From contig AP031359.1 of the NCBI GenBank assembly GCA_037833965.1, forward strand, positions 1,980,001 through 2,044,000: 64,000 nt of DNA. Reading direction: 5' to 3'. This document shows positions 1,197 through 37,991 of the stretch, piece after piece; positions within the stretch are counted from its first letter, which is position 1, and every line of letters begins with the position of its first letter. Both the position numbers and the translations under genes were made by a program. This DNA is from Marchantia polymorpha subsp. ruderalis. Lineage: Eukaryota; Streptophyta; Marchantiopsida; Marchantiales; Marchantiaceae. The notes below the pieces were generated by a model. That model saw only the letters and a list, made by a program, of their open reading frames with translations, had not been told where the DNA came from and did no database searches.

Positions 1197-2559
1197 TGCG
1201 TTTCCTGCACACACAGACGTTCTCCCCTTCACTCGCTCTCTCACAATCGCCACTGCGCGTCGGCCGCTCAAGCACTGACTGCTGTCACTCTCTCTTCTCT
1301 CACGCTCAAGTTCGCTACTCGCAATTCTTTCCAAGGTCTGTCAAGATCCTTGCGCAACTCGCCTCCGCACTCTCTCCTCTCTCTGCAGGTCTCTCCGCCC
1401 TTGCGCGTAATCTTGGAAGCTGGGAATCGCAAAATCAAGAATGAGAGAATGAGACTGGAGGGCAGTCTTTTCTTCTCCGAATTCAAGATCGTCCAACGTT
1501 CTTACTGGTTACAATTTACGCAGCCGGCTATACGGCCTAACGGTTCGCCCTTGCATGCTCGAATTCACGTCTCCGCACTGCACGCATTCGCATGCGTGAA
1601 TGTCGAATTCTCCCGCCGCCACCGTCTTCCGGACTCGAGTTCGACGCAGTGTATACGTCGGCTATGTTGTCTTTTCCTAACCCGTCCATCATCGGAGGCG
1701 TGTCGCCGCTGGCGTGTTCTTCATCCGTCGGCGCCTTGCTGGAGGCGCACATCCAGTCGGCGCGAATTACGCCGGCGCGTATTCGTACCGCTTGTTTTGT
1801 CCGTTCTGCCTTGTCCATTGCTGACGGCGCATATCCCGCCGGCGCAAATCATGCCAGCGCATCCGCCTATCAGCGCCACGTCGGAGGCGTACGTCCGGCC
1901 GGCGCTTTTCTTCCGTTGCGCAGCCGCCAAAGGCGCTTCCGACTCTGAGTTGATTTCCTCCCATGAGCGCGTGATTCCGCCGAAGGCGCATCGCCGAAGG
2001 CGTACGGGAGTCCTTTCCGACTGTGAACCCTAGCGCGAACTGCGCATGTCCGGCTACGAGTTTTCCAATGCTCATAACTTCTTTGTCCCTGATCCATCTC
2101 CGACGCTCTTGGGCTCGTTAGAACGAGCGTCCCGAGCTCTTTCTAATGCAACTTCAACCAACTGGAACTACCGTGTATTCCGATCGTTATGAAGGTTTCC
2201 CTTTCCGCGCTAGCGGCGCATCGCCGAAGGCGCACTCATGGTCGGAAGCCTTCAGAGGTCCGTGCCGTTCTTCTGACGTCTTTAGCAAAATCTCCTCCGG
2301 ATGTGTCTGCGCCGGAAGCGTAGCTTCCTTAAACGATGGGAGCGCGTGAGTAGAGACACCTCAGAAAAGGAGCTTTTGCCGAAGGCGCCGAAGACATTTG
2401 GCGCTGGTACATCCGACTTCGCGATTCTTCGTGACCTCGTGACGATCTCCTCAATCCACTCTGTTTAACGTACCCTTTTCTAACTACAGACACTGCTTCG
2501 ATACTTGTTTTCTAAAATTGTTTAAATTCTGCAAAAAAAACAAAAAGTGTGTTACCACA
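1..2559 (-). mobile_element. Giant LTR (U3 part), nested in another LTR, runs off the window
   Basis: Read on the minus strand this begins TGTGGTAACACAC at 2559 and is closely similar base by base to the start of the complete LTR at 22,296. It holds the U3 leader and the first part of ORF1 and leaves the window at position 1. It sits inside ORF1 of another LTR of the same family (2560-4312), so it is a younger insertion. It belongs to the subfamily rich in GCCGGCG motifs (around 1700-1930) and shares that trait with the copy at 22,296. The true end and any target duplication lie outside the window. Confidence 0.75.
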
Positions 2560-6289: not shown

Positions 6290-8524
6290 CGGACTGCCGC
6301 GCACTAACTCCCTACCCTGCCAATCCTCAGCTCAACTGCGCAGTCCCAACCGCCGCAACACTGCGGAAACCTCCGTCTCAAGGGTGGTCATGGTGTCCCG
6401 TGATCTCGACAGAAAAGAGTCTAGCTTCTTCGCCACTCGCCGCCGACTCCGACTGTCACCTGTCAACAACCCGGTTGCACGTAGCTCTAACTCGCGCAGT
6501 GTGAGTTCTCCTGCGCCGCCACTTCCCAGTGGGCGTAGCCCTTGAGACAGTGGGTGACTCGCCTCGCCATCTCTTCCTTCGTGTGATCTGCCGCCCGCCG
6601 GCGATCGTCTTCAACTACAACCAACTGCAATTCGGCCTCCGCACGCTGTGCTCTCAATTCCCCGCACTCAGATTGCAGTCTGCGGATTAATTCCTCATCC
6701 GCCTGTCGTGCGAGCTGACACTGCTCTAACAACCGTGTCTGCCGCACGAGCTCCTCTGACAAAATTCGATTCTCAGCCTGCTTAGAATCCAGCGCCTCTG
6801 TGAGCTTCGCCTTCTCCTTGGCAAACTCTTCCAGCTTCTCGTCCTTTGTCTTGTCAAAGTGTTTGTACAACTTCCTATTGAGGTTGTACTGACCCCACAG
6901 GCACTCATGCTTTTCCCGCAGATCCTGGTCCACACGGGCCAGCAACTTGCTGGTGTGGACTTTAGTGCGAGTTCGCCTACGCACTAACTCGAGGTAGGAC
7001 CAAGGCTGGCGAGGGTCCGCGTACTTCTCCATCTTGCGGTCCAGGTACCTCAGCAGAGGTACTACCTGCTCACAGAGCGCCGCCGTCGGCGCACCTACCA
7101 TTTCCTCCTCCTCCTCCTCGGTGGATCCCGATCCCAACACTGATTCCGTGGATCCTCCTTCCTCGTCATCTTCCGAATTGAGGATTTTGGTCGCCATTGA
7201 ATGCGTCGGCGACTGGCCTGTGCGGGGCTGCAAGATGTCTGCGTGCTCTGCCGCCGCTGACGCTCCTGCACCCTCGCTGCTCCCTGCTAAAATGTCCAAG
7301 GCGGTGGGTGAATGCGGCCGTGCCAAATTCGCATCGTCCGCCTGTCCCTGTCCCGCCGCGACTGTAACCTCTTCGCCGCCGGCGTCTACCGCCGAAGGCG
7401 ATCGTGCGGAATGTATATGCGCGGGGTGTAATTGTGCATCGCGCGCACGAATTTCAACCTGCGGACAATCAATCCGCTCCACCGATCGGTCCTGCTCCAC
7501 CCTTAGGTCGTGCGCCTGGGATGCGTCCGGCCTACGCGTAGGCGCAATTCCCGGCGCTTCTTCCGCCGAGGGCGCAGCGCCGAAGGCGTCTACCGCCAAA
7601 GGCGGTTGAGCCGAAGGCGGCCCGCCCGATGTCCCTTGGCCTGAAGGCCCTTCCGCCAAAGGCGCGGCTCACGTCGGCTCTCTGTTTGTAACTCGGTGGC
7701 CTGAAGGCCCTGGCGCCGAAGGCGCATATCCCAGCAATCTCGCCGCCGGAGGGCCTTGCCCCGAAGGCCCTTGAACCGAAGGCGTATCTTCCGCCGGCTC
7801 CTTCCCCTTCCTGCGTTGCACCGGGGGTGAGTCCTGCCTATGCGTAGGCAAACTTTCTCTGCCTATGCGTAGGCACTAGTCTACGTCCGCAAGGGGTCGT
7901 CTATCCACAGGGAGTCGCCTATGCGTAGGCAGCACACTCATCCGTGCCGCACGTTGTAGCTCTTGACCCGAAGGTCGTCTCTCCTCCGCCGAAGGCATAG
8001 GGTGGTCTACTAACGCCTCGGCCCGTCCGCGTAGTCCCATCCTTCTCCGGGGATGGACATCCCTTCTCTGTGGCGATCGTTGCCGTTTCCGCGCTGCTGG
8101 CCGGTAACAAAAGCCTACGGGCCTTCTGCTTCGGCCGGCTGCAGATCTCGTGCAGTGGCCGCTTCCGGGTGAGAGCAGCTGATTCTTGATGTTGCTCTTT
8201 CTCTGGTTCCTCTCTCCATCTCCGCTTCCGCGGCACTCGCGCTGCGGATGTGTCTCTCCCCGCATCTTGTTGACCCAGTGAAGTGGAAGTCGGTGAGTCC
8301 TCCGCGTCGGTGTCTACTTCATTATCCCGCACATACCTCCCGGGATGGTCGACTGACAATGGCGGAAATCGAGCACGCTCGGCCGCAGTTAAACAATTCA
8401 TCGACCGATAAAAGTTTATCAAGAAGGGGGAGAGGTGATTGAGTGTTCCTCTCCGCTCCTCAAACGCAAGCTGTCGCATCACCCTATGCAGGATACGCGA
8501 CCAGTGAACTAGAGCTCCAGCCAA
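6290..8524 (-). pseudogene. LTR-encoded ORF1, fragment with two long open pieces
   Basis: The pieces 8524-7919 (VHWSRILHRVMRQ, then NHLSPFLINFYRSMNCLTAAE and a basic RKRRWREEPEKE stretch) and 7659-6487 (390 codons) are parts of one ORF1 split by frameshifts. The second piece has a Pro/Ser/Gly linker made of PSGQ and PSAQ units, an acidic patch (EDDEEGGSTE...TEEEEEE), the conserved LCEQVVPLLRYLDRK block, and a long coiled coil from EKLEEFAKEKAKLTEAL to AEAELQLVVVEDDRRR. The tail (LRELELRAAG..., RRRSTGS) continues in another frame to about 6290. It is non-functional as read, and ORF1's role is unknown. Confidence 0.65.
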
Positions 8525-8684
8525 TGTGCGCAGGACCTGGGACTACAAGGATCGCTACCGCAGAAATGTAGCGGTGGCACTTCTGCAACTCTTGCAGCCG
8601 CACCGAACAACATTCACCACTTCTTGGCAAGTGTCTTTTGTGGAGCTGGCGTTGGCCGGAGCTCCGATTCACTGATCGCGTATC

Positions 8685-10900
8685 TTGCATAAGAGAACGC
8701 GGCAGCATGCATTTGAGGAGAAGGGGGGATTGATCAATCATCTCTCCCCCTTCTTGATCAACTTTTTTCTTTCGATGGGTTGTTTAACCGCGACCGAACG
8801 TGTTCAGTATCCGCTGCTGTCACTCAGCAATCCCGGGAGGTATGTGAGGGATGTCGAGGTCAACACCGACGCGGAAGAAACTCCGGTCTCCACGCCACCT
8901 GCCCAACAAGGTGCTGGGAGGGAAACATTCGCAGCACGAGTGCCGCGGAAGCGGAGATGGAAGAAAGAATCAGAGAAGGGTCCACATTGAGACTCGATGG
9001 CTCTCAAACGGAAGCGGCCACTAGAGGAAATTTGCAGAAGCAGAAAGCACGCAGGCTCGTATTGCCTACAAGTAGCGCGGAGATAGCGCGTGCCGCCGGA
9101 GAGAAGGAGACGCCATCCTCGGAGGAGGATGGGAACGCGCGGACGGCAGAGGGGTCAACAAACCTCCCTACGCCGAAGGCACGGATGCCTTCGGCGGAAG
9201 CAAGACGACCTTCGGGTCAAGAGAGACAACACGCGGCACAGATGAGTGTGCCGCCTACAGATAAGAGAGCTGCTCGGGTACCGTACGCGGACTCGCCTTC
9301 GGGGATGGGGCCTTTGGCACGTGCGCCTTCGGCGCAGTCGCCTCCGGTGCAGCAAAGGGAGGGAAAGGAGTCGGCAGAAGATCCGCCTTCGGCTCAAGGG
9401 CCTTCGGGGCAAGGTCCTTCGGCGGTGAGACCGCCGGAAAGTGCGCCTTTGGCGCAAGGACCTTCGGGCCGAGGAGTTGCAAGTAGGGAGCCGGCGGGGA
9501 AGGCGCCCTCGGCGAGAAGTCCGCCGGAAAGTGCGCCTTCGGAGGAAGGGCCTTCGGGCCAAAAGATATCAGGCGAGCCGCCTTCGGCGGAAGCGCCGCC
9601 AACAAATGTGCTTTCGGCGGCGGCGTCGGCACCTCCAACGTAGGACCTATCAAAGGAGTAGGACCTAACGGAGGAGCGAAATGACAGTCGGAAGGAGGAA
9701 ACACGTGTGCGCAATGCACAATTGCAATCCGCGCAGACACCTTCCGCACGAACGCCTTCGGCGGTGGACGCCTTCAGCGATGCGGAGTTAGCAGAAGCCG
9801 GACGGGCGGGCGATACGAATTTGACACAACCCAACTCTCCCACCGCCTTAGACATTCTGGCCGGAAGCAGCGAGGCTGCAGCGACGACAGTGGTGGCAGA
9901 CGACGCAGACGCTACGAAGCCACACTCACGACAGTCGCCGGAGAATTCAGTGCCGACCGAAATCCTCAGTTCGGAGGATGACGAAGGAGGATTCACGGAA
10001 TCGGCATCGGGATCGAGATCAAGTGAGGAGGAGAAACAATCAGTGGCAGGCACGCCGACGACGGCACTCTGCGAGCAGGTGGTACCTCTGTTGAGGTTCC
10101 TAGATCGCAAAGTAGAGAAGTATGCAGACCCCCGCCAGCCTGGGTCCTATGTCGAATTAGTGCGTAGGCAGACTCGGACTAAAGTCCACACCAACAAGTT
10201 AATGGCCCGTGTGGATGGGGATCTTAAAGATCTGCGGGAGAAGTATGAGTGTCTGTGGGGCCACCTTAATCTCACTCGGAAGATGCACAAGGCCATCGAC
10301 AAGTTGAAGGACGAGAAGCTTGAAGAGGCGGCAAAGGAGTTCGCCAAGGAGAAGGCGAAGCTCGTAGATGAGATGAATTCTGAGCAGGCTCAGAATTGAA
10401 TTGAGTCAGAAGAGCTCGTGCGACAGACACGGTTGTTGGAGCAGTGTCAGCTCGCACGTCAGGCGGATGAAGAATTAATCCGCAAACTGCAATCCGAGTG
10501 CGGGGAATTGAGAGCGCAGCGTGCGAAGGCCGAATTGCATTTGGCTGTAGTTGAAGACGATTGCCGGCAAGAGGCCGATCGCACGAAGGAAGAGTTGGCG
10601 AGGCGAGTCAGCCACTATCTCAGAGGTTACACCCACAGGGAAGTGGCGGCGTAGGAGAAACTCACACTGCGCGAGTTAGAGCTTCGTGCGGCGGCTTTGG
10701 TGTCAGGTGATAGTCGTAGCCAACGGCGAGTGGCAAAGAAGTTAGATTCGTTTCTGTCGAAGTCGCGGGACGCCATGGCCACCCTCGAGACAGAGGTTAC
10801 CGCGGTGTTGCGGCGGCTAGGACTGCGCAGTCAAGCTGAAGACTAGCAGGGTAGGGAGTTAGTGCGCGGCAGTCCGTCGCGCAGGAGGCGAAGCACGGGA
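8685..10900 (+). pseudogene. LTR-encoded ORF1, near-complete C-terminal two thirds, broken
   Basis: The pieces are 8685-8990 (EKGGLINHLSPFLINFFLSM), then about 9000-9643 in a shifted frame (linker made of PSAQ, PSGQ and PPESAPS units encoded by CCTTCGGCG/CCTTCGGGC hairpins), 9707-10,399 (acidic patch, LCEQVVPLLRFLDRKVEKY, start of the coiled coil) and 10,418-10,654 (EELIRKLQSECGELRAQRAK). The last three share one frame and are separated only by stops at 9641 and 10,397. A further frame-matched tail runs to about 10,900. It is clearly one decayed gene. The linker shows how the short palindromes are translated as PSA/PSG repeats. Confidence 0.65.
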
Positions 10901-10983
10901 TCTACAGAGTGTAGCGTAGCGTGGTTCCGTGCAGGCACATAGTACATGGCATTGTAGTGTAGTGTTAGTTAGGACTTAGAAGG

Positions 10984-10990
10984 TATAAAG
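10984..10990 (+). promoter_or_regulatory. LTR TATA box
   Basis: TATAAAG followed by TAGTTCAAGGCGTCTTGCC, in the same place relative to ORF1 as in all other copies. It is the likely promoter for the gag-pol transcript of this element. Confidence 0.6.
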
Positions 10991-11701
10991 TAGTTCAAGG
11001 CGTCTTGCCTTGGGATTCTTCCAGTTCGGAAGTGCTGATCGGGAACTCATTTTCTTTGCGTGTTTGTGTCCTTAATTCTGTCACCACGCAAGAGGAGCTA
11101 CAACTTGGCAATCCGCATTTTGTAGCTGAAGGCCTTTGGCCGAATGTTCAGAGCTAGTTTACTGGTTAGAGACTTGAGTAGTTCGGATCGACACCTGCGC
11201 GTGATTGCCGATGCTCAGAGTCAATTACTAGTTAGATACTTCAACAGTTTCCCCCTTACACTTTCGAGTGATTGTTCCTGATTGTACTCCTTCGGGATTT
11301 TCCCCTGAATGCCAAAGTGAAGTTTTGCTACTTTGAGTAAGCCTTGGTTGTAATTCAGGTTACGCTACAGCAGGTGCCTTCAGGGCAACCCCTGTAGTAT
11401 TTCTAGGAATGACAAGTGCCTAAGAATTCAAACTCTTCAATAGACTGTTATGGTGTGCTACTGGATCGTTTCTCAGTGGGGTCTCTCAGTTCAGACCTGT
11501 GTTCTCTGCGCGTTTTGTGAGTTGAGTGCGTTGTTCACCGTGTGAGTGACTTCGATCCGAAGTAGGAAGTCCAATCCGGGTTCCCTTTGCTAGCAGAAAC
11601 TAGTGAAAGGGTTGTAAAAGCCGGAGTTGGGAGTCACTACCCGCAGATTCGCTGAGTACAGTGCGTCAACACCGGAGTACGTGAGCAGCAATGCTCGGTG
11701 T

Positions 11702-13570
11702 ATGTCGACAAGAGCAAGTGGGAGCAAACTGAGTGCGCGATCTGCCCGCAAACTCCGTCGAGATTCAGAAAAAGCCGTGGAAGAGACACGGCGTCAGAAG
11801 GAGAACCAGTTGATATCAAAAACATTACCCAAGTCTAGTTCGGTTGGCACCACTGGCGGAGATACCACCAGTGATTCTGAACCAAACTTTGTGCTCACGG
11901 TTGTGTTAGACATACTATCCACAGAACCTTCCCTTAACTTAGAACAAGCCGCTCGAGAACCGTCAACAGACGAGCCAATGACGGACAGACCAGCCAATGC
12001 GCGACCGGTGTACTCTCAACTCTTTACCAAACATTCATATCCGAAGTACAAAGGGAGCGGGGATGACGATGATGCCGACTCCTACATCAAATTGTTTGAA
12101 TAAGTGTGTGTCACCAACCGCGAGATCAGCGATGATGACATACTGCGGATATTTCCTAGCCTGTTGCGGAAGAAGGAGCGCAGCTGGTATAACCACGAGA
12201 GTACCGACCCGAATGGTTTGCAAACGTGGGCTCAACTTAAGGAGAAGTTCCTTCGACGCTTCCGCGAGCTTGGCTACGACAGTCGGGTGCTTTCAAAACT
12301 GCGTAACCTCCAGCGGGAAAAGAAGGAGAACCTTCGTGATTACACTGAGAGGTTCCAAGACCTTCTCGACAGAATTCCGAAGACGGGACTAGGATCCCCC
12401 TTCTCAGTTCAGCAAGCGGTTGACTGGTACGTGACCGGATTAACAAGGGAGATGAAGACCTTTTGCAGACGTGGGAAGTGTGATACCATCAAAGATGTGA
12501 TTGCATCGGCAGAAGCTTTTGAGACTTCCACTCTCAACCGAAGAGGGAGAGAGCGACGGGACTCGGTAGAACGAAAGCCGAAAGGAGGACGAGGGAAACG
12601 CCGAGGGGCTACGCCTTCGTCGGAAGAACTGTCCTCGGATGAAGGCAGTACTTCATCAGAAGAAGAGACATCCTCGTCGGAAGAGGATAGGAAGAAGAAG
12701 AAGCGCGGAGCGGCAAAGAAGAAAAGCCAGAGAAGGGCAAATATGGACAAAGATTCGGGAGACATTGCCTTCAAAGTGGAGACCCTGGTCAAGGACTTCG
12801 CCGACTTGAAAGTCCACGTGGTGGGCGGTCAAGACCGACGGAAGTCTCCAGGGAGGTTGCGGGCGAATTTATGGTGTACTACGTGCGGAGCAGTGGGACA
12901 TGCTAACACTTAATGTCTTACCACCCGTCCGTCTTACCCGGTGAACGCAGTGGAGTGAGCACCTCAGTATTATGATGAAAACCCTCAGTACTATGGCGAG
13001 ACGAGTGAAGATGCGGCCTACGCCATCCAGTCGACCCCAGCTATTACCCCGATCCAGCCAATACATATACCCCGGTACCATTCAAGAGATATGGCTACTA
13101 CGCTACCCTAGAGGCGCATGGCACCTCCCGGGACGTATAACCAACAGCCACCGCCACCGCGGGCCTGTTTCAATTGTGGAGAAGTGGGACATTACTCTCC
13201 CCAATGTACCCACCCAAAAAGACAGACAGGGTATGTTCCGAGCTGCAGCAACTGCAAAAAGTCTGGACATACATCAGTGGAATGTGATCAACCCCCAGCA
13301 AACCGACCTACTGTGCGATTTGTGACGCCCCCTGCAAAGGATGACGTACAGGTCAATCAAGTCGATTTGAGTTCGGACAAGAATGACGAGGAGGAGGAAT
13401 GGCCCGAAGAAGAAGTTATGTGCGGACGGGTGGAGACCCGTAGCTCAAAGAGATCGAAAGAGGACGAACGGGATAATCGTAAGCACAGTCGCAAGCCCGA
13501 CGACCGAGAAGGGAAAGGAGAAGAGAAATCAAGTAGCAGGGCAGACTTGAGGCCTACGCGAAGGCCTTAG
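11702..13570 (+). pseudogene. Ty3/gypsy gag (capsid and nucleocapsid), broken by stops
   Basis: I start at the ATG at 11,702 because upstream in-frame sequence is LTR. One reading frame carries the whole gag, interrupted by a TAA at 12,101 and a TAA at 12,911. Order: a Ser/Arg-rich N-terminus; HSYPKYKGSGDDDDADSYIK; the retrotransposon gag domain with RSWYNHES, QLKEKFLRRFRELG and NLRDYTERFQDLL; a Lys/Glu/Ser-rich stretch; a first zinc knuckle CTTCGAVGH whose last Cys follows the 12,911 stop; then two knuckles CFNCGEVGHYSPQC and CSNCKKSGHTSVEC (CX2CX4HX4C). Gag would form the particle and bind genomic RNA. The continuous frame with few stops suggests fairly recent decay. Confidence 0.85.
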
Positions 13571-13573
13571 GCT

Positions 13574-14340
13574 ATGCGCGAAACACCTTCGGCGCGGCCT
13601 GATACAAGGACCGAAGACGAACAAGTACGTGTGTTGAGGCAGGAGTACGCCCCGGACATCAAGGACGAAGTCGCTGAACTTTTGAAGGAAGCAATCCGTA
13701 ATCGGACGGAGACGGAAGGACGGAACACGCGGACGCCTTCTGTCGCTCGGCCGTCTGCAACCTCGGACCAGCGTAAGACGTTGGTGTCAAGCCGACACGT
13801 CCACTACGATGTAGTGGAAGACATCGGAAATCACCGGGCTAACATCACGTTCAACCAGCTCCTAGACGACAACAAGACGTATCGAAAGATGCTTATGCTT
13901 TCGCTACGCCGTCCACGGAAGACCCGTGTAGTCAAACGTCCGGAAGTCTACCACGTCACCAGCAAAGACCTAGGACCTCCCGAGATCGATGTGGAGATCA
14001 GCGGATGCTATGTTCGCAAGGTACCGGTAGACTTAGGGTTGGGATTTAACATATTGACGGAGGATACTGCGCGCGCCTTAGGGTTTAGTATTTTTGAGCC
14101 TACAACACGAGTGTTGAGGCTGGCGGATCAAACGCGGAGGATGCTTCTGGGCATGTTGCGCAATATTAGAACCAACATCGGAGGCGCGGACTTTCATCCT
14201 GCAGCCTTTGATGAAGCGAGGATATGAGATCCTGCTCGGGCGACCATGGTTGTATGGTGCGCAAGTGCGATGTAATTGGCAGAGGCAACGTCTACGGTTT
14301 CCAGACCCCAAATATCCTTCGAGGATCATCACCGTCCCTT
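13574..14340 (+). pseudogene. Retrotransposon aspartic protease region, broken
   Basis: This continues in the same frame as gag after a TAG at 13,569, which suggests a gag-protease fusion. The protease region is marked by PEIDVEISGCYVRKVPVDLG, FNILTEDTARALGF and LRLADQTRR. The catalytic Asp is in VDLGLGFN, where related elements have DSG, DTG or DGG, so the second residue is atypical. A stop at 14,225 is bypassed by a one-base shift that restores GYEILLGRPWLYGAQV, the conserved C-terminal Gly-Arg-Pro-Trp block, up to about 14,340. It would cleave the polyprotein; this copy is inactive. Confidence 0.7.
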
Positions 14341-14555
14341 GAACCAAGGTTCCTCATGAAGGAGAGACACCATCGACAAGCGCAGTTTATACTTCGGGAG
14401 CGGAAAGTGATTCGTAGCTTCCGTTAGACTTCGACTGGACCCTCGACTTTGTGGGATTTGTCGCCTGCTGCTCGGTCGAAGAGGAACTGGACGCTATCCA
14501 GCCGGACGATGATTAGCAATTAACGGTAGGACTGGGAAGAAGCAAAACGAGTCAC

Positions 14556-15653
14556 ATGGAGGGCATTGTGGATCCTAGTGACTGTCGTGAAGTACAGCTC
14601 AGTCTTGATAAGAGCTTGAAGGTATCAAGCAAGGTGACGGGAGAGGAGCTAAGGGAGGTACAAGCATTCCTTCGCCACTATGTAGATGTCTTCGCCTGGA
14701 GAATAGAGGACATGAAAGGAATACCTGCACGGTATGGGGAACACCGGATTGACTTATTGGACGAAGCAGTTCCAATCCGTCAACGCCAGTACCGGCTCAA
14801 CCCGAAATACTCCTTGCTGGTTAAGGAGGAAATCGATAAGTACCTCAGCGCAGGTATCATCTACCCAGTTCTCAGTAGTGAATGGGTATCCCCGATCGTC
14901 ATCGTACCAAAGAAGTTGACAGGTAAGATAAGGGTATGCCAGGACTTCAGGAAGTTGAACGCGGCAACGCGTAAGGACCATCACCCCCTTCCATTCACGG
15001 ATGCCATTCTAGATCATGTCGCGGGACATGAGTGCTACAGTTTTCTCGACGGGTTCTCAGGATACAACCAGATGTCTATCAGGGAACAAGACAAGAACAA
15101 GACGACCTTCACAACCGATTGGGGAACCTACGCGTATCACAAGATGCCCTTCGGTTTGTGCAATGCACCGGCCACCTTCCAGCAGATGATGACCAACATC
15201 TTCCAAGAGCAGTTGAGAAAGTTTCTAGAGATATTCATAGACGACTTCTGCGTCTTTGGAAAACGGTCGGAGAGTCTGGGACACCTTCGACATACTTTTG
15301 ATTGATGCAGGGAGAGCAGTTTATCGCTGCATCCCAAAAAATGTTTTTTCTTCATGACCAGCGGAATCCTGTTGGGTTATCGAGTTTTGTCTAACGGCAT
15401 TGCAGTAGACACCGAGAAGGTCAAGGTCATTCTCGAACTAGAGCCGCCGACGAATCTGCGAGAACTGAGAGCATTTCTTGGTCATGTGGGATACTACCGA
15501 AGATTCATACACATGTATGCAATCTTGGCAGCCGATCTGACCAAGTTGCTAAAGAAGGTTGAACCCTACGAGTGGGGTGAGAAGCAGCAGTTGGCGTTCG
15601 AGGCTCTCAAATCTAAGCTTACAACCGCCCCGGTACTGAGGAGACCGGACTAG
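14556..15653 (+). pseudogene. Ty3/gypsy reverse transcriptase, broken by stops
   Basis: The ORF 14,556-15,305 has the fingers-palm segments: HRIDLLDEAVPIRQRQYRL, EWVSPIVIVPKK, IRVCQDFRKLNAATRKDHHP, then CYSFLDGFSGYNQ with the first catalytic Asp, MPFGLCNAPATFQ, and IFIDDFCVFGK with the catalytic Asp pair (FIDD in place of YVDD). After a stop at 15,303 the same frame resumes at 15,354 with GILLGYRVLSNGIAVDTEKV and LRAFLGHVGYYRRFIH (thumb/connection). It ends at a TAG at 15,651 in the linker to RNase H. Motifs and order are those of Ty3/gypsy (Metaviridae) plant elements. The enzyme core residues are all present, and only stops break it. Confidence 0.9.
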
Positions 15654-16633
15654 GACCGACCTTTCTATGTCTACGTCGACACATCGGCATTCGCTATCGG
15701 TGTGGTTTTAAGTCAGAAGGATGACAACAAAAAGGACTACCCGATTTATTTTGCGAGCCGTCAGCTGTCGCTAGCAAAAAAGAAGTATACCACGACAGAG
15801 AGAGAGGCGTTGGGGATGGTGTATTCCTGCAAGAAATTCAAACACTATCTAATCTGCTACGAGTTTGTGTTCCATGTAGACCACTACGCCTTGCAGCATT
15901 TAGTGAAGAAAGCAGATCTGTCTGGCCGGACAGCCAGGTGGGTGCTGCTGCTACAGGAATTCACTTATACTGTGCAGACCAGGAAGGGTGTTCACCACGA
16001 AAATGCAGACTACCTCTCCAGATTATGGACCCAGCCAACCGAGGAGAAATTGGTTGACGACTTCCCTAACGAACAACTCTTTCAGTTGTCAGCTAGCAAT
16101 GAGTCCAGGTATGCAGACTTGTACAGATACTTGCTCACCCTTCAATGCCCGGAAGGCATGGATGTTGAGCAACGGACAGTCTTCATACATAAGGCTGGCC
16201 CTTTCCAACTCCAACAGGGAGTATTGTTCAAGAAGATGGCAGATGAGAGATTGTGTAGATGCTTGGAGGAATCAGAGGTTCCACGGGTCGTAAGTGCGAT
16301 GCACACAGAAGATGCTGGTGGCCACTATGCCACCAGGAATACAGTTACCAAGATCGTGAACGCAGGGTATTGGTGGCCGACAATGTTCAAGGATGTCCTC
16401 GAATACATACGGAAGTGCGACAGTTGCCAGAGGACAAGAAGACCAACGCCTACCACACGGTGGCCCCTGAGTCCCATCATGCCCTAAGCACCTTTTGAAA
16501 AATGGAGAATCGACTTCGTAGAACCAATACAGCCATTCACCAGGAACACACGAAGGCACTACATCCTGGTAGCAACGGACTATGCAACCAAGATGGTGAA
16601 GGCCAAAGCTACTCAAAGAGATGATGCAGCGAT
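15654..16633 (+). pseudogene. RNase H and N-terminal integrase, truncated
   Basis: In frame with the reverse transcriptase. RNase H shows FYVYVDTSAFAIGVVLSQ (catalytic Asp), TEREALGMVYSCKKFKHYL (catalytic Glu) and FHVDHYAL. The integrase zinc finger follows: AMHTEDAGGHYATRN, YWWPTMFKD and CDSCQRTR (HHCC). After a TAA at 16,485 the core begins FEKWRIDFVEP and ILVATDYATKMVKAKATQRDD (first catalytic Asp). At about 16,633 the sequence jumps into ORF1 of an LTR, so the rest of the integrase, the polypurine tract and the start of the 3' LTR are deleted. I see no extra RNase H domain of the kind found in Tat-lineage elements. Confidence 0.85.
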
Positions 16634-17934
16634 CAAATTTTGTCATAGGAGCTCGTGCGACAGACACGGTTGTTGGAGTAGTGTCAGCTCGCACGTCAGG
16701 CGGATGAAGAATTAATCCGCAAACTGCAATCCGAGTGCGGGAAATTGAGAGCGCAGCGTGCGAAGGCCGAATTGCAGTTGGTTGTAGTTGAAGACGATCG
16801 CCGGCGAGAGGCAGATCGCACGAAAGAGGAGTTGGCGAGGCGAGTCAGCCACTATCTAAGACGATACATCCACTGGGAAGTGGCGGCGCAGGAGAAACTC
16901 ACACTGCGCGAGTTAGAGCTTCGTGCGGCGGGTTTGGTGTCAGGTGACAGTCGGAGCCGGCGGCGCGCGGCGAAGAAGTTAGATTCGTTTTTGTCGAAGT
17001 CGCGGGACGCTATGGCCACCCTCAGGACAGAGGTTTCTGCGGAGTTGCGGCGGCTTGGACTGCGCAGTCGAGCTGAAGACCGGCAGGGTAGGGAGTTAGT
17101 GCGCGGCAGTCCTTCGCGCAGGAGGCGAAGCACGGGTTCTGCGGAGTGAAGTGTAGCGTGGTTCCGTGCAGGCGCGTAGTACATGGTAGTGTAGTGCTAG
17201 TTAGGACTTAGAAGGTATAAAGTAGTTCAAGGCATCTAACCTTGGGATTCTTCCAGTTTCGGAAGTGCAGATCAGGAACTCATTTTCTCTGCGTGTTTGT
17301 GTCCTTAGTTCTATCACCGCGCAAGAGGAGCTACAACTTGGCGATCCGCATTTTGTAGCTGAAGGCCTTCGGCCGAATGTTTAGAGCTAGTGTACTAGTT
17401 AGAGACTTGAGTAGTTCGGATCTACACTTGCAGGTGATTGCCGATGCTCAGAGCTAGTCACTAGTTAGATACTTGAACAGTTTCCCCCTTACACTTTCGA
17501 GTGATTGTTCCTGATTGAACTCCTTCGGGATTTTTCCCCTGAATGCCAAAGTGAAGTTTTGCTACTTCGAGTAAGCCTTGGTTGTAATTCAGGTTACGCT
17601 GCAGCAGGTGCCTTCAGGGCAACCCCTGTAGTATTTCTGGGAATGACAAGTGCCTAAGAATTCAAACTCTTCAATAGACTGTTATGGTGTGCTACTGGAT
17701 CGTTTCTCAGTTGAGTCTCTCAGTTCGGACCTGTGTTCTCTGCGCGTTTTGTGAGTTGAGTGCGTTGTTCACCGTGTGAGTGACTTCAATTCGAAGTAGG
17801 AAGTCCAATCCGGGTTCCCTGTGCTAGCAGAAACTAGTGGAAGGGTTGTAAAAGCCGGAGTTGGGAGTCACTACCCGCAGATTCGCTGAGTGTATTCGTG
17901 AGAGACTTTCCCCATGAAATCTTAAGTAGAGGTT
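16634..17934 (+). mobile_element. Remnant of the 3' LTR of the gag-pol element
   Basis: It begins in the ORF1 coiled coil (CTCGTGCGACAGACACGG), right at the integrase deletion point, and continues through a TATA box (17,216-17,222) and R-U5. It parallels the 5' LTR at 10,400-11,650 closely, consistent with the two LTRs of one element. It stops matching the LTR near 17,934, in U5, and gives way to unrelated DNA. Confidence 0.65.
16745..17149 (+). pseudogene. LTR-encoded ORF1, C-terminal fragment
   Basis: An open stretch of 134 codons covering the end of the coiled coil (LQLVVVEDDRRREADRTKEE), the WEVAAQEKLTLRELELRAAG block, the RRAAKKLDSFLSKSRDAM block and the basic tail SPSRRRRSTGSAE. The start is the deletion joint with integrase, so it is only a tail. 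It shows the natural ORF1 C-terminus, about 70 bases before the TATA box. Confidence 0.65.
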
Positions 17935-20399: not shown

Positions 20400-20861
20400 A
20401 GCTGTTTCTCCTCCACGCCGGCATTGCATTCAAGCGGGCCGCGGCCAGCCCAAGTGTCTAACGTTGAGCAATCTTGATCGCCAAAGGAAGTGACTCACCC
20501 TCACATTTTCAATTTTGCATTTGCTAGAGCTCCCGACGCGCAGCCGGAGAATCAGCGGAGAGAATTGTAGAGAGTTGTGTCGAGAGTGTGTTGCAAGAGA
20601 GTGTGTAGGGAATCTGCCTAGAGTGCGTAGCAGCATAGTGCGTAGCGGAAAAGTCCTTGCACGAGTCTTGTGGAGAATTCGCGGGGAGCTCGCGGATAGT
20701 TTGGGAGAGTGGGAGAGAATTGCAAATTACAACGAGTTTGCCCGAGGTCCCGACGCGCAGTAGCCGAGTGTGCAGAGAGTTGCAAGAAGTTCGCGGCAGC
20801 AGAGAGCAGAAGTTTGCAGAGACTTTGCGAGAGTTCAATGGCCATGTCAACTTAGCTACAA

Positions 20862-21871: not shown

Positions 21872-22290
21872 ACTGCAGAAGAAAGCGTTGGAGCTGCGAG
21901 ATTCTATGGTGGCCGATGCCCAGCGCGAATTTGAAGGGCAGCGTGCGAAGATTGGGGTGGAGCTCAATTCCGAGCGAGGTTAAAATTGCATCTTGCAAGA
22001 GAGCAGACGATTGAACGGGTAGGGAGTTGGTGCGTAGCCGGCCTTCGCATCGGAGGCATAGCAGATGAAGCGGAGAGTAGAGTGTTAGGTAGCTAGGATT
22101 GTAGAGTGTATAAAGTAGTTCAAGGCGTTTGCCTTGGGGGATTTTCCAGTTTCGGAAGTTCAGTTCAGGACCTCGTTTTCTCTGCGCGTTTGTGTCTTTC
22201 GTTCAGTCACCGCGCAAGAGGAGCTACAGCTCGTCGAAGTTACCGCATTTTGTAACTGAAGGCCTTCGCCCGAATGTTCTGAGCTAGTGT

Positions 22291-22295
22291 AGTCT
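22291..22295 (+). repeat. Target site duplication, left copy (AGTCT)
   Basis: AGTCT directly before TGTGGTAAC. The same five bases follow TTATTACA at 27,125-27,129. A 5-bp duplication is the usual footprint of an LTR-element integrase. Confidence 0.85.
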
Positions 22296-23639
22296 TGTGG
22301 TAACACACTTTTTGTTTTTTTTGCAGAATTTAAACAATTTTAGAAAACTAGTACCGTAGCAGTGTTTGTAGTTAGAAAAGGGTACGTTAAATAGAGTGGA
22401 TTGAGGAGATCGTCACGAGGTCACGAAGAATTGCGTAGTCGGATGTACCAACGCCAATGTCTTCGGCGCCTTCGGCAAAAGCTCCTTTTCTGAGGTGTCT
22501 CTACTCACGCGCTTCCAGCGTTTAAGGAAGCTACGCTTCCGGCGCAGACACCTCCGGAGGAGATTTTGCTAAAGACGTCAGAAGAACGGCACGGACCTCT
22601 GAAGGCTTCCGACCATGAGTGCGCCTTCGGCGATGCGCCGCTAGCGCGGAAAGGGAAACCTTCATAACGATCGGAATACATGGTAGTTCCAGTTGGTTGA
22701 AGTTGCATTGGAAAGAGCTTGGGACGCTCGTTCTAACGAGCCCAAGAGTGTTGGAGATGGATCAGGGACGAAGAAGTTATGAGCGTCGGAAAACTTGTAG
22801 CCGGACATGCGCCGTTCGCGCTAGGGTTCACAGTCGGAAAGGACTCCCGTACGCCTTCGGCGATGCGCTTCGGCGGAATCGCGCGCTCATGGGAGGAAAT
22901 CAACTCAGAGTTGGAAGCGCCTTTGGCGGCTGCGCGACGGAAGAAAAGCGCCGGCCGGATGTACGCCTCCGACGTGGCGCTGATGGGCGGATGCGCTGGC
23001 ATGATTTGCGCCGGCGGGATATGCGCCGTCAGCAATGGACGAGGCAGAACGGACAAAATAAGCGGTACGAATACGCGCCGGCGTAATTCGCGCCGACTGG
23101 ATGTGCGCCTCCAGCCAGGCGCCGACGGATAAGGAACACGCCAGCGGCGACACGCCTCCGGTGATGGTCGGGTTAGGAAAAGACAAACATAGCCGACGTA
23201 TACACTGCGGCGAACTCGAGTCCGGAAGACGGTGGTGGCGGGAGAATTCAACATTCACGCATGCGAACGCGCGCAGTGCGGAGACGTGAATTCGCGCATG
23301 CAAGAGCAAACCGTTAGGCCGTATAGCTGGCTGCGTAAATTGTAACCAGTAAGAACGTTGGACGATCTTGAATTCGGAGAAGAAAAGACTGCTCTCCAGT
23401 CTCATTCTCTCATTCTTGATTTTGCGATTCCCAGCTTCCAAGATTACGCACAAGGGCGGAGAGACCTGCAGAGAGAGAAGAGAGTGCGGAGACGAGTTGC
23501 GCAAGGATCTTGACAGACCTTGGAGAGAATTTGCGAGTAGCGAACTTGAGCGCGAGAGAGAGACTTGAGCGGCCGACGCTCAGCGGCGATTGTGAGAGAG
23601 CGAGCGGAAGGGAGAGCGTTTGTGTGTGCAGGAAACGCA

Positions 23640-26171
23640 ATGTCGAAGGTTCCCCAGCTGCGAGTGTCTCCACTCAGGGTGCCGCAGATCGGTCTACGCG
23701 CATTTCAAGATGTGCTGATGGGGTTGAAGCTCGATTTCCTCCTGTGGGGATGGAACTGGACATGTCCGGAGATGGTGCGCGAGTATCTGCAAGAGGGACA
23801 CAAGCCCTCACGCGGATTCCGTCCACATCCAGAAAGATGGAACATTTGTGACTGGGCGCAGGTGTTGGGCAGGTGTGCCGGCGAGGAAGGGTATCTCCTC
23901 TTCGAGGCCGATAGCGTGAAGGTGTCGCAGGAGGAAGAAATCTCCTACAATGAGCTTTTCAAAGTTGCCAGGCATCCCAAGAACGGTTTCCGGACACGGG
24001 ATTACAAAGATCGATTGCGGAGAAATGTCGCGACTACATTGTTGCAGATATTGCAGCCTACCAAGACCGCTTACATGCATGGTTGGCAGGTAGGATTTGT
24101 GGAGCTAGTGTTGTCAAGAGCTCCAGTACATTGGGCACGGCTCCTGTGGAAGGTGACGCGCCAACATGCGCAAGAAGAGAGAGGAGGAACCCTCAATCAT
24201 CTTTCGCCTTACCTGATTGTGTTTTATCGAGCGATGGGATGTTTGACAAATTCAGAGCGGACACGGTTTCCGCTGCTGACACGGAGCTATCCAGGTAGAT
24301 ACTCACGGGAGGCCGAAGTAGACACGGATCCGGACGAGGAACCTGCCAGTCCGCCTCCGGCTCCGCCCCCAGCAAGAGCAGCAGAAGAACGTCGAAGCGA
24401 GCGCATTCCGCGAAAGCGGAAGTGGGATGAGAGACCTGAGGACAGGCAGCCGGAGGTGCCAGCTGCGCCGACTCGTAGTCGGCCAACCAACGAGCCTCAC
24501 AACCGACCAAAACAGAGGGCACGCAAAATGCCAACTAGTACTGAGGAGACCGGGCGTACTCCGGTCCGGCGGAATCCCACGCAGGAGGAGATAATCGCGC
24601 AGATTCTGGGGAAGTCGACAAATACCTCTGCGCAGAAGGCACCAATGCCTTCAGAAGAAGATGGACGGACTGACAGTCGGCCGACTACGAGTCGGGCGAC
24701 TGAAGGTCGACAAACGGAAGAAAGGCCGACGGAGCGGCGCGTTGAACCGGACAGCAGACCGGAAGCAGAAGGGAGTTTGGCTGACGAGCCAACAACCCTC
24801 AGAGGGTCGTCTTCGGCGGAAGGCACTTCTGGGAAAACGCCGCCAGCAAGCAGGCCAAGTGGAGTGAAGACGCGCAGGGTGTATCCGACTGCCAGTCGGC
24901 CAACTGCTAGTCGGCCAACTGCGAGTTGGTCAACAGAGAGTCGGCCGGATTCGCCGACTGCGAGACGGACAGGGCCGGCGACCAGTGTGCGGACGCCTTC
25001 GGCGGACGCACCTCCAGCGAAGACACCTTCCGCGCAGATCGCGCCGGAAGGGCAGGTAGCAGAAGCGGGCGGTGCAAAGGTGACAAAAGTCACTGCGGCG
25101 TCGACCCCTTCGGAAATTAAAGATCGAGCCGGAACAGGGGCTCAAGCAATGGGATCCCCCTGTGCCTTGGATATTTTAGCAGGGAGTGGAGCGGCAGTCG
25201 CGGCGGAAGCTGCTGCGCGCCACAGTTCCAGGGAGACGCCAAGGGATTCGGTGGCGACTTAAATCCTTGAAACGGAGGATGAGACGAGCTCGGAAGAGCA
25301 GGAAGCGGATTCTGTGCAGAAAACGCCAACAGGGGTGTTGTGCGGGCAGATAGTTCCACTCCTGCGCTATCTGGATCGCAAGACATCCAAGTACTCGGGT
25401 ACCGGAAAACCGCAGTCTTATGTGGAGACTGTCAAACGCAGGACAAGGAGCAAGGTGGCCACTTGGGCCTCTAGGTGCCAAGTATTGCAGGATAGGAACA
25501 CTACCCTCCGACAACACCTGGCGGTCACACAGAAGCTATACCAAACCTTGCAGCAGCAGAGGTAGGATGCGGCGACGAAAAGCCAGGCGGATGCTGAGCT
25601 AATGCGGGCAAAGATCGAGTCGGAATTGCAGGAAGAGCGGAGACAAAACCGCATCTTAGCAGCAGAGCTTGCGCGCCAGATGCGCGCCTTAGAAGAAAGT
25701 CAAAGAACACACAAGGAGGATGAGGAGTTGTTGCGCAACTTGCAATCCGAGTGCTCGGATTTGAGGGCGCAGCGCGCAGATGCGGAAATGCAGCTAGCAG
25801 AGGTGGAAGGCAGCTGCCGGGTGACTCACTATCTAAAAGGATACGGCCATTGGGAGGTGGGAGCTCAAGAGAGGATCACACTCAAGGAGTTCGAGCTTCG
25901 GGCGGCGGCATTGACGGAGGGTGACAGTCGGAGTCGGCGGCGAGTAGCGAGGAAATTAGAATCCTTCTTGTCGGGTGCGCGCGACACTATGGCGCACTTA
26001 GAGTCGGAAGTAACTGCAGCCCTCCAACGCCTGGGGTTGCGCAGCCGGTCGGAAGATTGGCAAGGTAGAGATAGAGAGCGAGGCAGTCCGGCGCGCAAGA
26101 GGCGCAGCACCGGATCTGCAGAGTGCAGTAGCATAGTTTGGTTTCGTGCAAGTGTTGCGAGTAGTAGATAG
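23640..26171 (+). CDS. LTR-encoded ORF1, best-preserved copy (two internal stops)
   Basis: One frame spans about 844 codons with stops only at 25,260 and 25,563. Residues 1-230 form a globular domain: PQIGLRAFQDVLMGLKLDF, LLWGWNWTCPEMVREYLQ, WAQVLGRCAGEEGYLLFEAD, then GGTLNHLSPYLIVFYRAMGC. Residues about 230-540 are a disordered basic, Pro/Ser/Thr linker with PTTSR/PTASR repeats. From about 560 comes a conserved VPLLRYLDRK block, a long coiled coil (IESELQEERRQNRILAAELA onward), the HWEVGAQERITLKEFELRAA block and a basic Arg/Ser tail. I start at 23,640 because other copies share this ATG; a longer in-frame start at 23,565 exists. Sited wholly within U3, it would need its own upstream promoter. 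It resembles the extra ORF of Ogre-type elements in being additional to gag-pol, but differs in position. Function unknown. Confidence 0.7.
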
Positions 26172-26202
26172 GATAGCGTAGTGTTAGTTAGGACTTTTGA
26201 GG

Positions 26203-26209
26203 GTATAAA
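26203..26209 (+). promoter_or_regulatory. LTR TATA box
   Basis: TATAAAG followed by TAGATCAAGGCGTTTTGCC, 31 bases after the ORF1 stop. Transcription would start about 30 bases further on, making U3 about 3.9 kb and R-U5 about 0.9 kb. Confidence 0.6.
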
Positions 26210-27124
26210 GTAGATCAAGGCGTTTTGCCTTGGGACTCTTCCAGTTTCGGAAGTACAGATCAGGAACTCACTTTCTTGGCGTGTTTGTGCATTTTGGTCC
26301 TGGCACCACGTAGAGAAGCTGCAGCATAGCGAAGTTACCGTATGTTGTAGTTGAAGGCCTTCGGCTGAATGTTCAGAGCTAGTACCCGGTTAGAGACTTG
26401 AGTAGTGCGGATCTGCACCTGCGGGTGATTTCTGATGCTCAGAGCCGGCTGCGAGTTAGAGACTTGAACAGTTCCCCCTTACTCCTTCGAGTGACATATC
26501 CTGATTGTACTCCTACGGGAAGTTTCCCCTGAATGCCAAAGTGAAGTTTTATTACTTCGTGTAAGCCTTGGTTTGCAATTCAGGTTGTGTGTGTGTTGCT
26601 GGGTTGTGTCTCAGTTAAGTCCTCAGTCGGGCCTGTACTCCCTGCGTTTGGTGTGAGTCGAGGGTGACGTCCACGGCGTATGAAGAGGCTTCGTTCCGAA
26701 GTGGGAAGTCCAGTCCGGGTACCCTACGCTAGTTCATGGCGGAAGGGCAGTAAAAGCCGGAGTGGGAGTCACTACCTGCAGAACCTCTGAGTGCACTTTT
26801 GAAACACTTTCCCCCTGAAATCCGAAGCGGAGGTCCTGACCGACCTCCGAGTTGTGCTTTTGCCAGTTTCAGGTGTGTGTGTGTGTGTTGAGTGACTACG
26901 CTGTACAGTGCATCCTCCGAGCATCCTCCGAGTCGAGATCCTCCTCCGAGTCGAGCCTCCGAGTCGAGCACTGCAGTATTTCTGGGAGTGACAGTCGCCT
27001 GAGAATTCAAACTCTACAAAAGTCTGTTAAACGTGACACTTTTACTCTGTGTGTTGCCTCTGTCCCTGTGGGTTCGATCTTTTTACCACCATACTGCAGT
27101 TTTAGCCTTTGGTGGGTTATTACA

Positions 27125-27245
27125 AGTCTAATTAGGATCTTCAAGTTCGGACTTTCGCCTTTAGACGATTTTCCCTGTTTGTATTCCTTCGGGATTTTCC
27201 CCCTGAATGCTAAAGTGAAGTTTTTGCTAACTTTGGAGTAAGCCT
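27125..27245 (+). mobile_element. Rest of the interrupted older LTR
   Basis: Begins with the right AGTCT duplication and continues as R-U5 sequence (CTTCGGGATTTTCCCCCTGAATGCTAAAGTG...), collinear with the segment expected after 22,295. It ends near the left edge of the long inverted repeat. Confidence 0.65.
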
Positions 27246-27249
27246 TCGG

Positions 27250-37942: not shown

Positions 37943-37955
37943 CCTCCGTCGCCCA

Positions 37956-37991
37956 CCTAAACCCTCCTAAACCCTTAAACCCACCCCTAAC
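37956..37991 (-). promoter_or_regulatory. Telo-box-like motifs 5' of the SIN3-like gene
   Basis: CCTAAACCCT, CCTAAACCCTTAAACCC and ACCCCTAAC lie 15-50 bases upstream of the ATG (written on the plus strand). Such AAACCCTA motifs are common near plant transcription starts, especially in genes of growth and ribosome biogenesis. They probably lie in the 5' UTR or core promoter. Confidence 0.5.

What the first reader, a model, noticed from the sequence alone, without database searches (positions are those of the whole stretch)
22296..27124. A gypsy-type LTR of about 4.8 kb that carries an 840-codon ORF inside U3
The unit starts TGTGGTAACACAC, ends GTGGGTTATTACA and is flanked by AGTCT on both sides. 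ORF1 lies between the TGTGG end and the TATA box, so it is wholly in U3. If the whole unit is an LTR, every full-length element carries two ORF1 copies. LTR-encoded genes are rare (the mouse mammary tumour virus sag gene is a precedent in U3); Ogre-type plant elements have an extra ORF, but between the 5' LTR and gag. An LTR-borne ORF with a globular N-terminus, disordered linker and coiled coil looks undescribed to me.
Basis: partly seen in the sequence, partly recalled or inferred. Interest (0 to 1): 0.88.

Follow-up and report, generated by a model that had tools for sequence, protein, structure and literature searches.

The report
Protein-coding gene inside retrotransposon terminal repeats
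In a Marchantia liverwort, an abundant jumping-gene family carries an extra, still-selected protein gene inside its long terminal repeats, so a new insertion brings two copies and even a lone leftover repeat can keep one; that position is rare and looks new for plants.

Summary
Window 22296-27124 is a 4,829-bp TG...CA unit flanked by AGTCT. It is a solo LTR of a high-copy Ty3/gypsy-like family in a Marchantia genome. Five full-length elements were read in pieces. Each has two complete units (4.9 or 5.4 kb) around gag-pol or its junctions; outer 5-bp duplications are exact in four and differ by one base in the fifth. Paired units differ by 0.06-1.0%, other units mostly by 3-6% from the window unit, so the whole unit is the LTR. 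ORF1 (844 codons counting the stop; 851-853 aa where intact) ends 32 nt before the only TATAWA box of the LTR (13 of 13 copies), so it lies in U3. ORF1 is under protein-level constraint: family A dN/dS is about 0.3, and indels are 6-8 times rarer than in the flanking LTR, which shows no codon rhythm. The window copy is dead (two in-frame stops). Relatives were found only in Marchantia polymorpha and unnamed 'lgn' contigs; no credible Pfam, NCBIfam or PDB match. Function is unknown; I favour a nuclear accessory protein expressed from the 3' LTR. Nine searches of open-licence papers showed no plant precedent for an LTR-borne gene.

The parts
22291..22295 (.). left target-site duplication AGTCT
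22296..27124 (+). solo LTR, 4,829 bp, TG...CA
   Evidence: the same unit is the complete LTR of full-length elements
22296..26233 (+). U3 (right border inferred about 30 bp after the TATA box)
   Evidence: position of the only TATAWA; border inferred
23640..26171 (+). ORF1, 844 codons including the stop; in-frame TAA at 25260 and TAG at 25563 in this copy
   Evidence: selection
23640..24341 (+). conserved N-terminal region of ORF1 (about 230 residues)
   Evidence: lowest dN/dS in most pairs
24342..25259 (+). low-complexity linker with basic, NLS-like clusters near its start (up to the first in-frame stop)
25566..26168 (+). C-terminal region, weak 3.5-residue periodicity
   Evidence: on the intact copy P0001
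26204..26209 (+). TATAAA box of the LTR promoter, 32 nt after the ORF1 stop
   Evidence: 13 of 13 units, one TATAWA each
26234..27124 (+). R-U5 leader (extent inferred)
   Evidence: inferred from the TATA box; in full-length copies the primer site lies 21-22 nt after this end
27125..27129 (.). right target-site duplication AGTCT
1..2559 (-). second copy of the same family, 95% identical over unit positions 1-2535, cut by the window edge
8508..17933 (+). related element: LTR remnants carrying ORF1 pieces on both sides of gag-pol (11618-16487); 1.26 kb of the two LTRs still align at 93%

Best explanation
The unit is a solo LTR of a large Ty3/gypsy-type retrotransposon group in Marchantia whose third gene (ORF1) lies inside U3. 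Shown: full-length elements are LTR (4.9-5.4 kb) - primer site - gag-protease - UAG - RT-integrase - polypurine tract - LTR; pol stops 37 nt before the 3' LTR, so everything after that belongs to the LTR. Follows from the standard retrotransposon cycle: reverse transcription copies ORF1 into both ends, and LTR-LTR recombination leaves a solo LTR with a complete ORF1. Shown: ORF1 evolves as a protein-coding gene. Inferred: because the only TATA box lies after ORF1, the copy that is expressed is the one in the 3' LTR, as the last gene of the genomic RNA or of a spliced derivative (the MMTV sag or foamy-virus bel arrangement, recalled). Inferred, about 35%: ORF1 is a nuclear accessory protein (basic NLS-like cluster, no clear membrane segment) acting in trans on the element's own LTR chromatin, transcription or RNA.
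For: Full-length copies with matching outer duplications: exact in 4 of 5, one mismatch in the fifth. Paired LTRs differ by 50 of 4.91 kb (C4), 51 of 4.88 kb (C6), 33 of 5.40 kb (C5), 3 of 4.90 kb and 16 of 4.91 kb (C9), while other units are mostly 94-97% identical to the window unit, some 88-93%. On C1 and C2, 43 of 95 exact LTR|primer-site junctions have an exact polypurine|LTR junction 5.77-5.80 kb downstream on the same strand, 0 on the opposite strand; those two contigs hold 58 exact polypurine junctions. Genome-wide exact counts: 5,945 LTR ends, 1,301 LTR|primer-site and 909 polypurine|LTR junctions. ORF1 selection: codon-position divergence 4.2/3.1/7.3% (N-terminal region 3.0/1.5/7.2%) against 5.3/4.6/4.7% upstream and 2.6/2.7/3.0% downstream; distinct gap intervals per kb 2.7 in ORF1, 16.0 upstream, 18.7 downstream; dN/dS 0.29-0.32 for four pairs of intact family A copies, 0.44 for the one family B pair. 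A KRK-like basic cluster follows the conserved domain in 38 of 42 ORF1 sequences that cover it (no chance control). The two genomic ORF1s tested have no 19-residue stretch above 1.6.
Against: No transcript or protein data: expression from the 3' LTR and the nuclear role are untested. No conserved splice donor was seen near the leader, and the AG before the ATG is only partly conserved between families. Only 3 of the 7 distinct gap intervals in ORF1 are multiples of 3 (60 of 108 in the pairwise count). One relative, P0016, has a hydrophobic stretch of mean 1.98. The sampled units were chosen by similarity, so the intact fraction (5 of 13; 2 of 4 in related families) is not a genome estimate. 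Whole-ORF and C-terminal dN/dS between families is mostly saturated and not computable. The fold could not be predicted.
Confidence: 0.88

Rival explanations
1. ORF1 is expressed from its own promoter in the first 1.3 kb of U3, in both LTRs and in solo LTRs, as a stand-alone gene; solo LTRs could supply the protein in trans.
For: The units have about 1.34-1.38 kb before the ATG. In one search, 58 of 63 hits are entries named hypothetical proteins of M. polymorpha subsp. ruderalis, so gene finders do call such genes; RNA support for those models is not known to me.
Against: No TATAWA upstream of ORF1: each of 13 units has exactly one, after ORF1. A DNA comparison of the window unit with family B loci aligned nothing of 100 bp or more before unit position 1339, so no conserved promoter was seen. 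TATA-less promoters are not excluded.
Confidence: 0.3
2. ORF1 is an env-like or movement-type protein, the sense ORF3 of plant elements, captured into the LTR when the polypurine tract moved upstream.
For: Same orientation and same order after pol as the sense additional ORFs reviewed in PMC7264820 (part 1 of 3 of the text read).
Against: It is not in the internal region (pol stop to LTR is 37 nt). The best 19-residue hydropathy means are 1.35 and 1.14 in the two genomic ORF1s tested, below the usual membrane threshold of 1.6 (threshold recalled), though 1.98 in the relative P0016. No credible family match.
Confidence: 0.15
3. ORF1 is a structural or RNA-chaperone helper of gag (particle assembly, RNA packaging).
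For: Low-complexity linker with basic clusters; one annotated Marchantia protein (P0015) joins an ORF1-like stretch to a gag domain, though this may be a gene-model artefact.
Against: gag itself has Retrotrans_gag and zinc-knuckle domains, so the role is already filled.
Confidence: 0.2
4. ORF1 is a passenger: an accidental open frame kept open because the copies are young.
For: Paired LTRs differ by only 0.06-1.0%; 8 of 13 sampled units have broken ORF1.
Against: Codon rhythm and indel depletion are confined to ORF1 inside one and the same LTR. Two families with about 48% identical ORF1 proteins both have open copies. dN/dS between families in the N-terminal region is 0.20-0.22, at dS 1.65-1.79.
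Confidence: 0.03

Closest known systems
Mouse mammary tumour virus sag (LTR-encoded superantigen)
   Same: A complete protein gene in U3, so copied into both LTRs and kept by solo LTRs (recalled; the listing of PMC9412291 shows only that the phrase 'LTR contains an ORF' occurs there).
   Different: No family or PDB match links the proteins; vertebrate retrovirus, short LTR (about 1.3 kb, recalled); sag is a membrane glycoprotein (recalled), whereas the two genomic ORF1s tested have no membrane-type segment.
Additional ORFs (aORF-3S, env-like) of plant Ty3/gypsy elements such as Athila and Bagy2
   Same: Sense orientation, after pol, conserved in many copies (PMC7264820, part 1 of 3 of the text read).
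   Different: Those lie in the internal region between pol and the 3' LTR; here nothing lies between pol and the LTR but 37 nt.
Ogre ORF1 and other Tat or OTA extra ORFs; large LTRs of OTA elements
   Same: PMC6317226 (three passages) reports LTRs up to about 5 kb and extra ORFs in non-chromoviruses.
   Different: Extra ORFs there are outside the LTR (Ogre ORF1 before gag, recalled); Marchantia is not mentioned in that main text (0 occurrences).
Foamy-virus bel/tas and lentivirus nef
   Same: Accessory genes at the 3' end that overlap U3 (recalled).
   Different: They overlap U3 only in part (recalled); ORF1 is wholly in U3, 1.3 kb from its left edge.
Bdelloid rotifer LTR elements with captured ORF3 genes
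   Same: A third ORF, often of non-env type (PMC5408684, passages and section 10).
   Different: ORF3s there are typically separate spliced units; the phrase 'within the LTR' has 0 occurrences in that text.

Membership tests
LTR retrotransposon | two near-identical direct terminal repeats, TG...CA, around the coding region | tested here: met
   5 of 5 elements read; pairs differ 0.06-1.0%
LTR retrotransposon | target-site duplication of 4-6 bp | tested here: met
   5 bp. Full-length: GCAGA, GAAAA, CTCTC, ACTTC exact, GGTCA/AGTCA one mismatch (4 of 5). Solo LTRs: AGTCT, CCTAT, AGAAG, CTCAT, AAACC, ATTCA, TGCGC exact; L032 and L036 one mismatch (7 of 9)
LTR retrotransposon | primer-binding site after the 5' LTR and polypurine tract before the 3' LTR | tested here: met
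   TGGCGCCGCTGCCGGGGA 21-22 nt after the LTR; GAGGAGGGGGGCA just before it
Ty3/gypsy (Metaviridae) | gag with CCHC, then PR-RT-RH-IN in that order | tested here: met
   Retrotrans_gag, zf-CCHC, Asp_protease_2, RVT_1, RT_RNaseH, Integrase_H2C2, rve in order in the C4 element
chromovirus | chromodomain at the integrase C-terminus | tested here: not met
   none at E up to 1 in the C4 pol piece that runs to the pol stop
OTA (Athila/Tat) | RT phylogeny, archaeal RNase H in Tat | not tested
   no tree was built; Pfam shows RNase H models over one region only
plant aORF-3S / env-like | ORF between pol and the 3' LTR | tested here: not met
   37 nt between the pol stop and the LTR; ORF1 is in the LTR
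plant aORF-3S / env-like | transmembrane segment | tested here: not met
   best 19-residue hydropathy 1.35 and 1.14 in the two genomic ORF1s; 1.98 in the distant relative P0016
MMTV sag-like LTR gene | whole gene in U3 of the LTR | tested here: met
   ORF1 ends 32 nt before the only TATAWA, 13 of 13 units; the start site itself was not mapped
MMTV sag-like LTR gene | expressed from a spliced or 3' transcript | not testable with these tools
   no RNA data; no clear splice donor by pattern
Transposase_32 (PF20167), a lead recalled from the look of the N-terminal region | profile match | tested here: inconclusive
   no match in the genome, but the control genomes gave none either; not among the hits of 34 relatives

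The most novel reading that the evidence does not exclude
A plant retrotransposon group moved a trans-acting regulatory gene into U3, so that the gene persists in many solo LTRs after gag-pol is lost. Solo LTRs would then be a dispersed multigene family that can help or fight later elements, for example by anti-silencing or transactivation of the shared LTR promoter.
Probability: 0.25. Interest if true: 0.88.

Novelty: new variant of a known kind. Interest (0 to 1): 0.68.

Why it matters
Genes wholly inside LTRs are rare; I know of sag in MMTV (recalled), and found no plant case in nine searches of an open-licence library. Placement in U3 changes the genetics of the gene: two copies per insertion, copying between the LTRs at each reverse transcription, and survival in solo LTRs, which here may outnumber full-length copies (4,644 of 5,945 exact LTR ends are not followed by an exact primer site; an upper bound, since this also counts 3' LTRs and mutated junctions). 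It also warns annotators: many Marchantia 'hypothetical proteins' are pieces of this ORF. Marchantia is a laboratory plant with good genetics, so the function can be tested directly.

Tried and rejected
Rejected: (1) 'only the first 1 kb is the LTR': paired repeats span the full 4.9 or 5.4 kb. (2) 'DNA transposon with TIRs': 5-bp duplications, primer site and polypurine tract. (3) 'Accidental ORF': codon rhythm and indel depletion. (4) Known families: no Pfam match for ORF1 at E up to 1; among 34 relatives no family hit more than 2 members; Pfam on family B ORF1 and four relatives, NCBIfam on ORF1 of families A and B and PDB sequences (best E 0.24) gave nothing credible.

Led nowhere: AlphaFold2 of the N-terminal 234 residues with 14 and 34 sequences, mean pLDDT 48.7 and 48.9, so no fold search was run. 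Joined flanks of the window copy found no uninterrupted relative among the held loci. Splice-site patterns were not convincing. Searches for an LTR-encoded ORF in plants gave no precedent: nine paper searches answered, seen as listings except for the papers cited; the library holds open-licence PMC papers only, so this is weak evidence of absence. PMC12037069 was opened because it holds 'LTR ORF'; five passages showed ordinary polyprotein ORFs.

Dropped before counting: the 13 units are the complete copies among loci chosen by similarity to the window unit; units split between loci, or broken by nested insertions or deletions, were left out, among them both C9 copies that are about 88% identical to the window unit. 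The five full-length elements were chosen by looking for neighbouring units, not at random. Pair counts are not independent; one search counts distinct sites and gaps instead. Searches list only the first 100 places each; the pairing uses the C1 and C2 entries, which both lists hold completely.
Full report
What was checked. The unit at 22296-27124 is 4,829 bp, begins TGTGGTAACACAC, ends GGTGGGTTATTACA and is flanked by AGTCT. In the genome (G000, 241 Mb, 9 contigs; window on the 5.6-Mb contig C1) a query of each end gave 40 scored long matches, the window itself included, at 96-100% identity, out of 1,981 and 2,075 first-look candidates. ORF1 relatives in the protein database carry Marchantia polymorpha names, and one of them, P0006, matches C6 of this genome at 100% over residues 340-638 and 93% over 71-314, so the host is very probably M. 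polymorpha. C1 may be its sex chromosome (from size; not tested).

The unit is an LTR. On C4 a unit (starting at L017:294, itself interrupted by a nested related insertion) ends at L017:7772 and is followed by TAAGGAGCCGAC... and TGGCGCCGCTGCCGGGGA. Then come gag (Retrotrans_gag, zinc knuckle), protease, RT, RNase H and integrase. Pol stops 37 nt before a second complete unit (L018:3606-8499), which is preceded by GAGGAGGGGGGCA; both outer flanks read GCAGA. On C6 the same arrangement has GAAAA on both sides and a nested solo unit with its own CCTAT duplication. On C9 one element with ACTTC on both sides is nested in another whose outer flanks read GGTCA and AGTCA; their gag-pol was not annotated, but the internal lengths, 5,796 and 5,766 bp, are the usual ones. 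A related family on C5 has 5.39-kb LTRs, duplication CTCTC, and again a nested solo LTR with TGCGC. Paired LTRs differ at 8+42 bases of 4.91 kb, 47+4 of 4.88 kb and 6+10+17 of 5.40 kb, and on C9 at 3 of 4.90 kb and 16 of 4.91 kb, while other units are mostly 94-97% identical to the window unit, some 88-93%. That is the signature of repeats made together by reverse transcription. Solo LTRs: 7 of 9 looked at have exact 5-bp duplications, two have one mismatch.

Scale. Exact patterns over the genome, both strands: LTR end RGTGGGTTATTACA 5,945 (reversed control 37); LTR|primer-site junction 1,301 (control 0); polypurine|LTR junction 909 (control 0). On C1 and C2, 43 of 95 primer-site junctions have a polypurine junction 5.77-5.80 kb downstream on the same strand, and none on the other strand; there are 58 polypurine junctions on those contigs. 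These patterns fit both families, and the long ones tolerate fewer mutations than the short one, so the excess of LTR ends suggests many solo LTRs (4,644 of 5,945 not followed by an exact primer site), but this is an upper bound and includes 3' LTRs. PMC9985172 (passages) gives 222 full-length LTR elements for another M. polymorpha assembly; 43 from two contigs here is not obviously at odds with that, but was not reconciled.

ORF1 is in U3. Each of 13 units has exactly one TATAWA; it lies 32 nt after the ORF1 stop in the reference copy and is at the same aligned place in 13 of 13. Family B has TATAAAA in the corresponding place. ORF1 starts about 1.34-1.38 kb from the left LTR edge. Only 37 nt lie between the pol stop and the LTR, so the rest of the sequence after pol is LTR. 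The transcription start itself was not mapped.

ORF1 is a gene. Intact in 5 of 13 sampled units (851-853 codons) and in 2 of 4 related units (961 and 955 codons, in a family B 3' LTR and in the solo LTR nested in it). In 13 units, divergence by codon position is 4.2/3.1/7.3% in ORF1 and 3.0/1.5/7.2% in its first 230 codons, but flat upstream (5.3/4.6/4.7%) and downstream (2.6/2.7/3.0%). Sites with a variant shared by two or more copies number 44/31/88 at positions 1/2/3 in ORF1, 36/29/29 upstream and 6/8/11 downstream. Distinct gaps per kb are 2.7 in ORF1, 16.0 upstream and 18.7 downstream; multiples of three are 3 of 7, 1 of 22 and 2 of 18. NG86 dN/dS for four pairs of intact family A copies is 0.29-0.32 overall; for the one family B pair 0.44. 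In the N-terminal region it is 0.08-0.13 for three family A pairs, 0.41 for the closest pair (dS 0.04) and 0.03 for family B. Between families it is 0.20-0.22 there at dS 1.65-1.79; the whole ORF gives 0.22 for one pair and is saturated for the other, and the C-terminal part is saturated. The linker is loose (0.25-0.44 in family A, 0.75 in the family B pair). The window copy has two in-frame stops and is not functional as it stands.

What ORF1 might be. No credible Pfam, NCBIfam (best E 0.05, SMC model) or PDB sequence match. Homologues: 15, 36 and 63 hits in three searches, all M. polymorpha or unnamed 'lgn' contigs. The first two searches scored only the 7,995 candidates sharing most words, so distant relatives may be missed; which other liverwort proteomes the database holds was not checked. 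Two AlphaFold2 models are unusable. The best 19-residue hydropathy mean is 1.35 in the family A ORF1 and 1.14 in family B, 1.98 in one distant relative. A KRK-like cluster follows the conserved domain in 38 of 42 ORF1 sequences that cover it, with no chance control. The linker is 75% P/S/T/E/R/A/G. Heptad-like periodicity of the C-terminal part is weak (33 of 1,000 and 77 of 1,000 shuffles as strong; 513 of 1,000 in a third segment). I therefore prefer, without proof, a nuclear accessory protein acting in trans; NLS and membrane thresholds are recalled rules of thumb.

Expression. In the element, RNA starting in R of the 5' LTR would contain ORF1 once, near its 3' end. The ATG context AACGC(A/G)ATG is shared by the four families looked at, with AG a few bases upstream in each, which would fit a splice acceptor, but no matching donor was found. 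Whether ORF1 is read from a spliced RNA, a bicistronic RNA or a separate promoter is open.

Comparison. [quoted passage not shown] part 1 of 3 read) places them in the internal region. PMC6317226 (three passages) reports LTRs up to about 5 kb and extra ORFs in OTA elements, with no mention of Marchantia. PMC11963269 (one passage) and PMC5408684 (passages and section 10) describe additional ORFs of the internal region or after pol. PMC9985172 describes no LTR gene in the passages seen. The arrangement works like MMTV sag (recalled), but no test that I could run relates the protein to a known one.

Verdict. Real, ordinary in its retrotransposon machinery, unusual in carrying a selected gene wholly inside U3 at high copy number. 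New variant of a known kind.

Noticed in passing
window 14514; L018:760; L019:8109; L037 (reverse strand 4396): gag-protease and RT-integrase share one frame at this point, separated by a single UAG in the context UAG CAA (C/U)UA in all four copies checked; this is the tobacco-mosaic-virus type of readthrough context (recalled), so pol is probably made by stop-codon readthrough.
   Followed up: partly
L017:7773-7812, L019:5222-5261, L037 about 8360-8420: The tRNA-like primer site TGGCGCCGCTGCCGGGGA begins 21-22 nt after the LTR end, an unusually long spacer that the standard priming model would copy into the LTR; unexplained.
   Followed up: no
G000 C2:31345316-31384684: Primer-site and polypurine junctions repeat four times with an exact step of 11,184 bp (LTR plus internal region), i.e. 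a tandem LTR-internal-LTR-internal array.
   Followed up: no
G000 C1:2.26-3.26 Mb: Junction positions recur with offsets of about 406, 393 and 366 kb, suggesting large tandem duplications (or assembly duplication) on the small contig.
   Followed up: no
window 27268-29284: Long inverted repeats (474 nt at 97% and 358 nt at 96% complementarity) that could form one large hairpin next to the solo LTR.
   Followed up: no
window 20752-22288 and 27174-27246: The window LTR sits inside or beside remnants of a related LTR with its own ORF1 pieces; a clean empty site could not be shown.
   Followed up: partly
window 33815-37966 (-): 1,383-aa open frame with the look of a SIN3-type corepressor (recalled, not searched).
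   Followed up: no
window 50896-52724 (-): Open frames that look like hAT transposase pieces (recalled look, not searched).
   Followed up: no
window 42285-42644: 45-bp tandem repeat array, six overlapping copies in the listing.
   Followed up: no
protein P0015: Annotated Marchantia protein that joins an ORF1-like stretch with gag domains (PF03732, PF19259); fusion or gene-model artefact.
   Followed up: no
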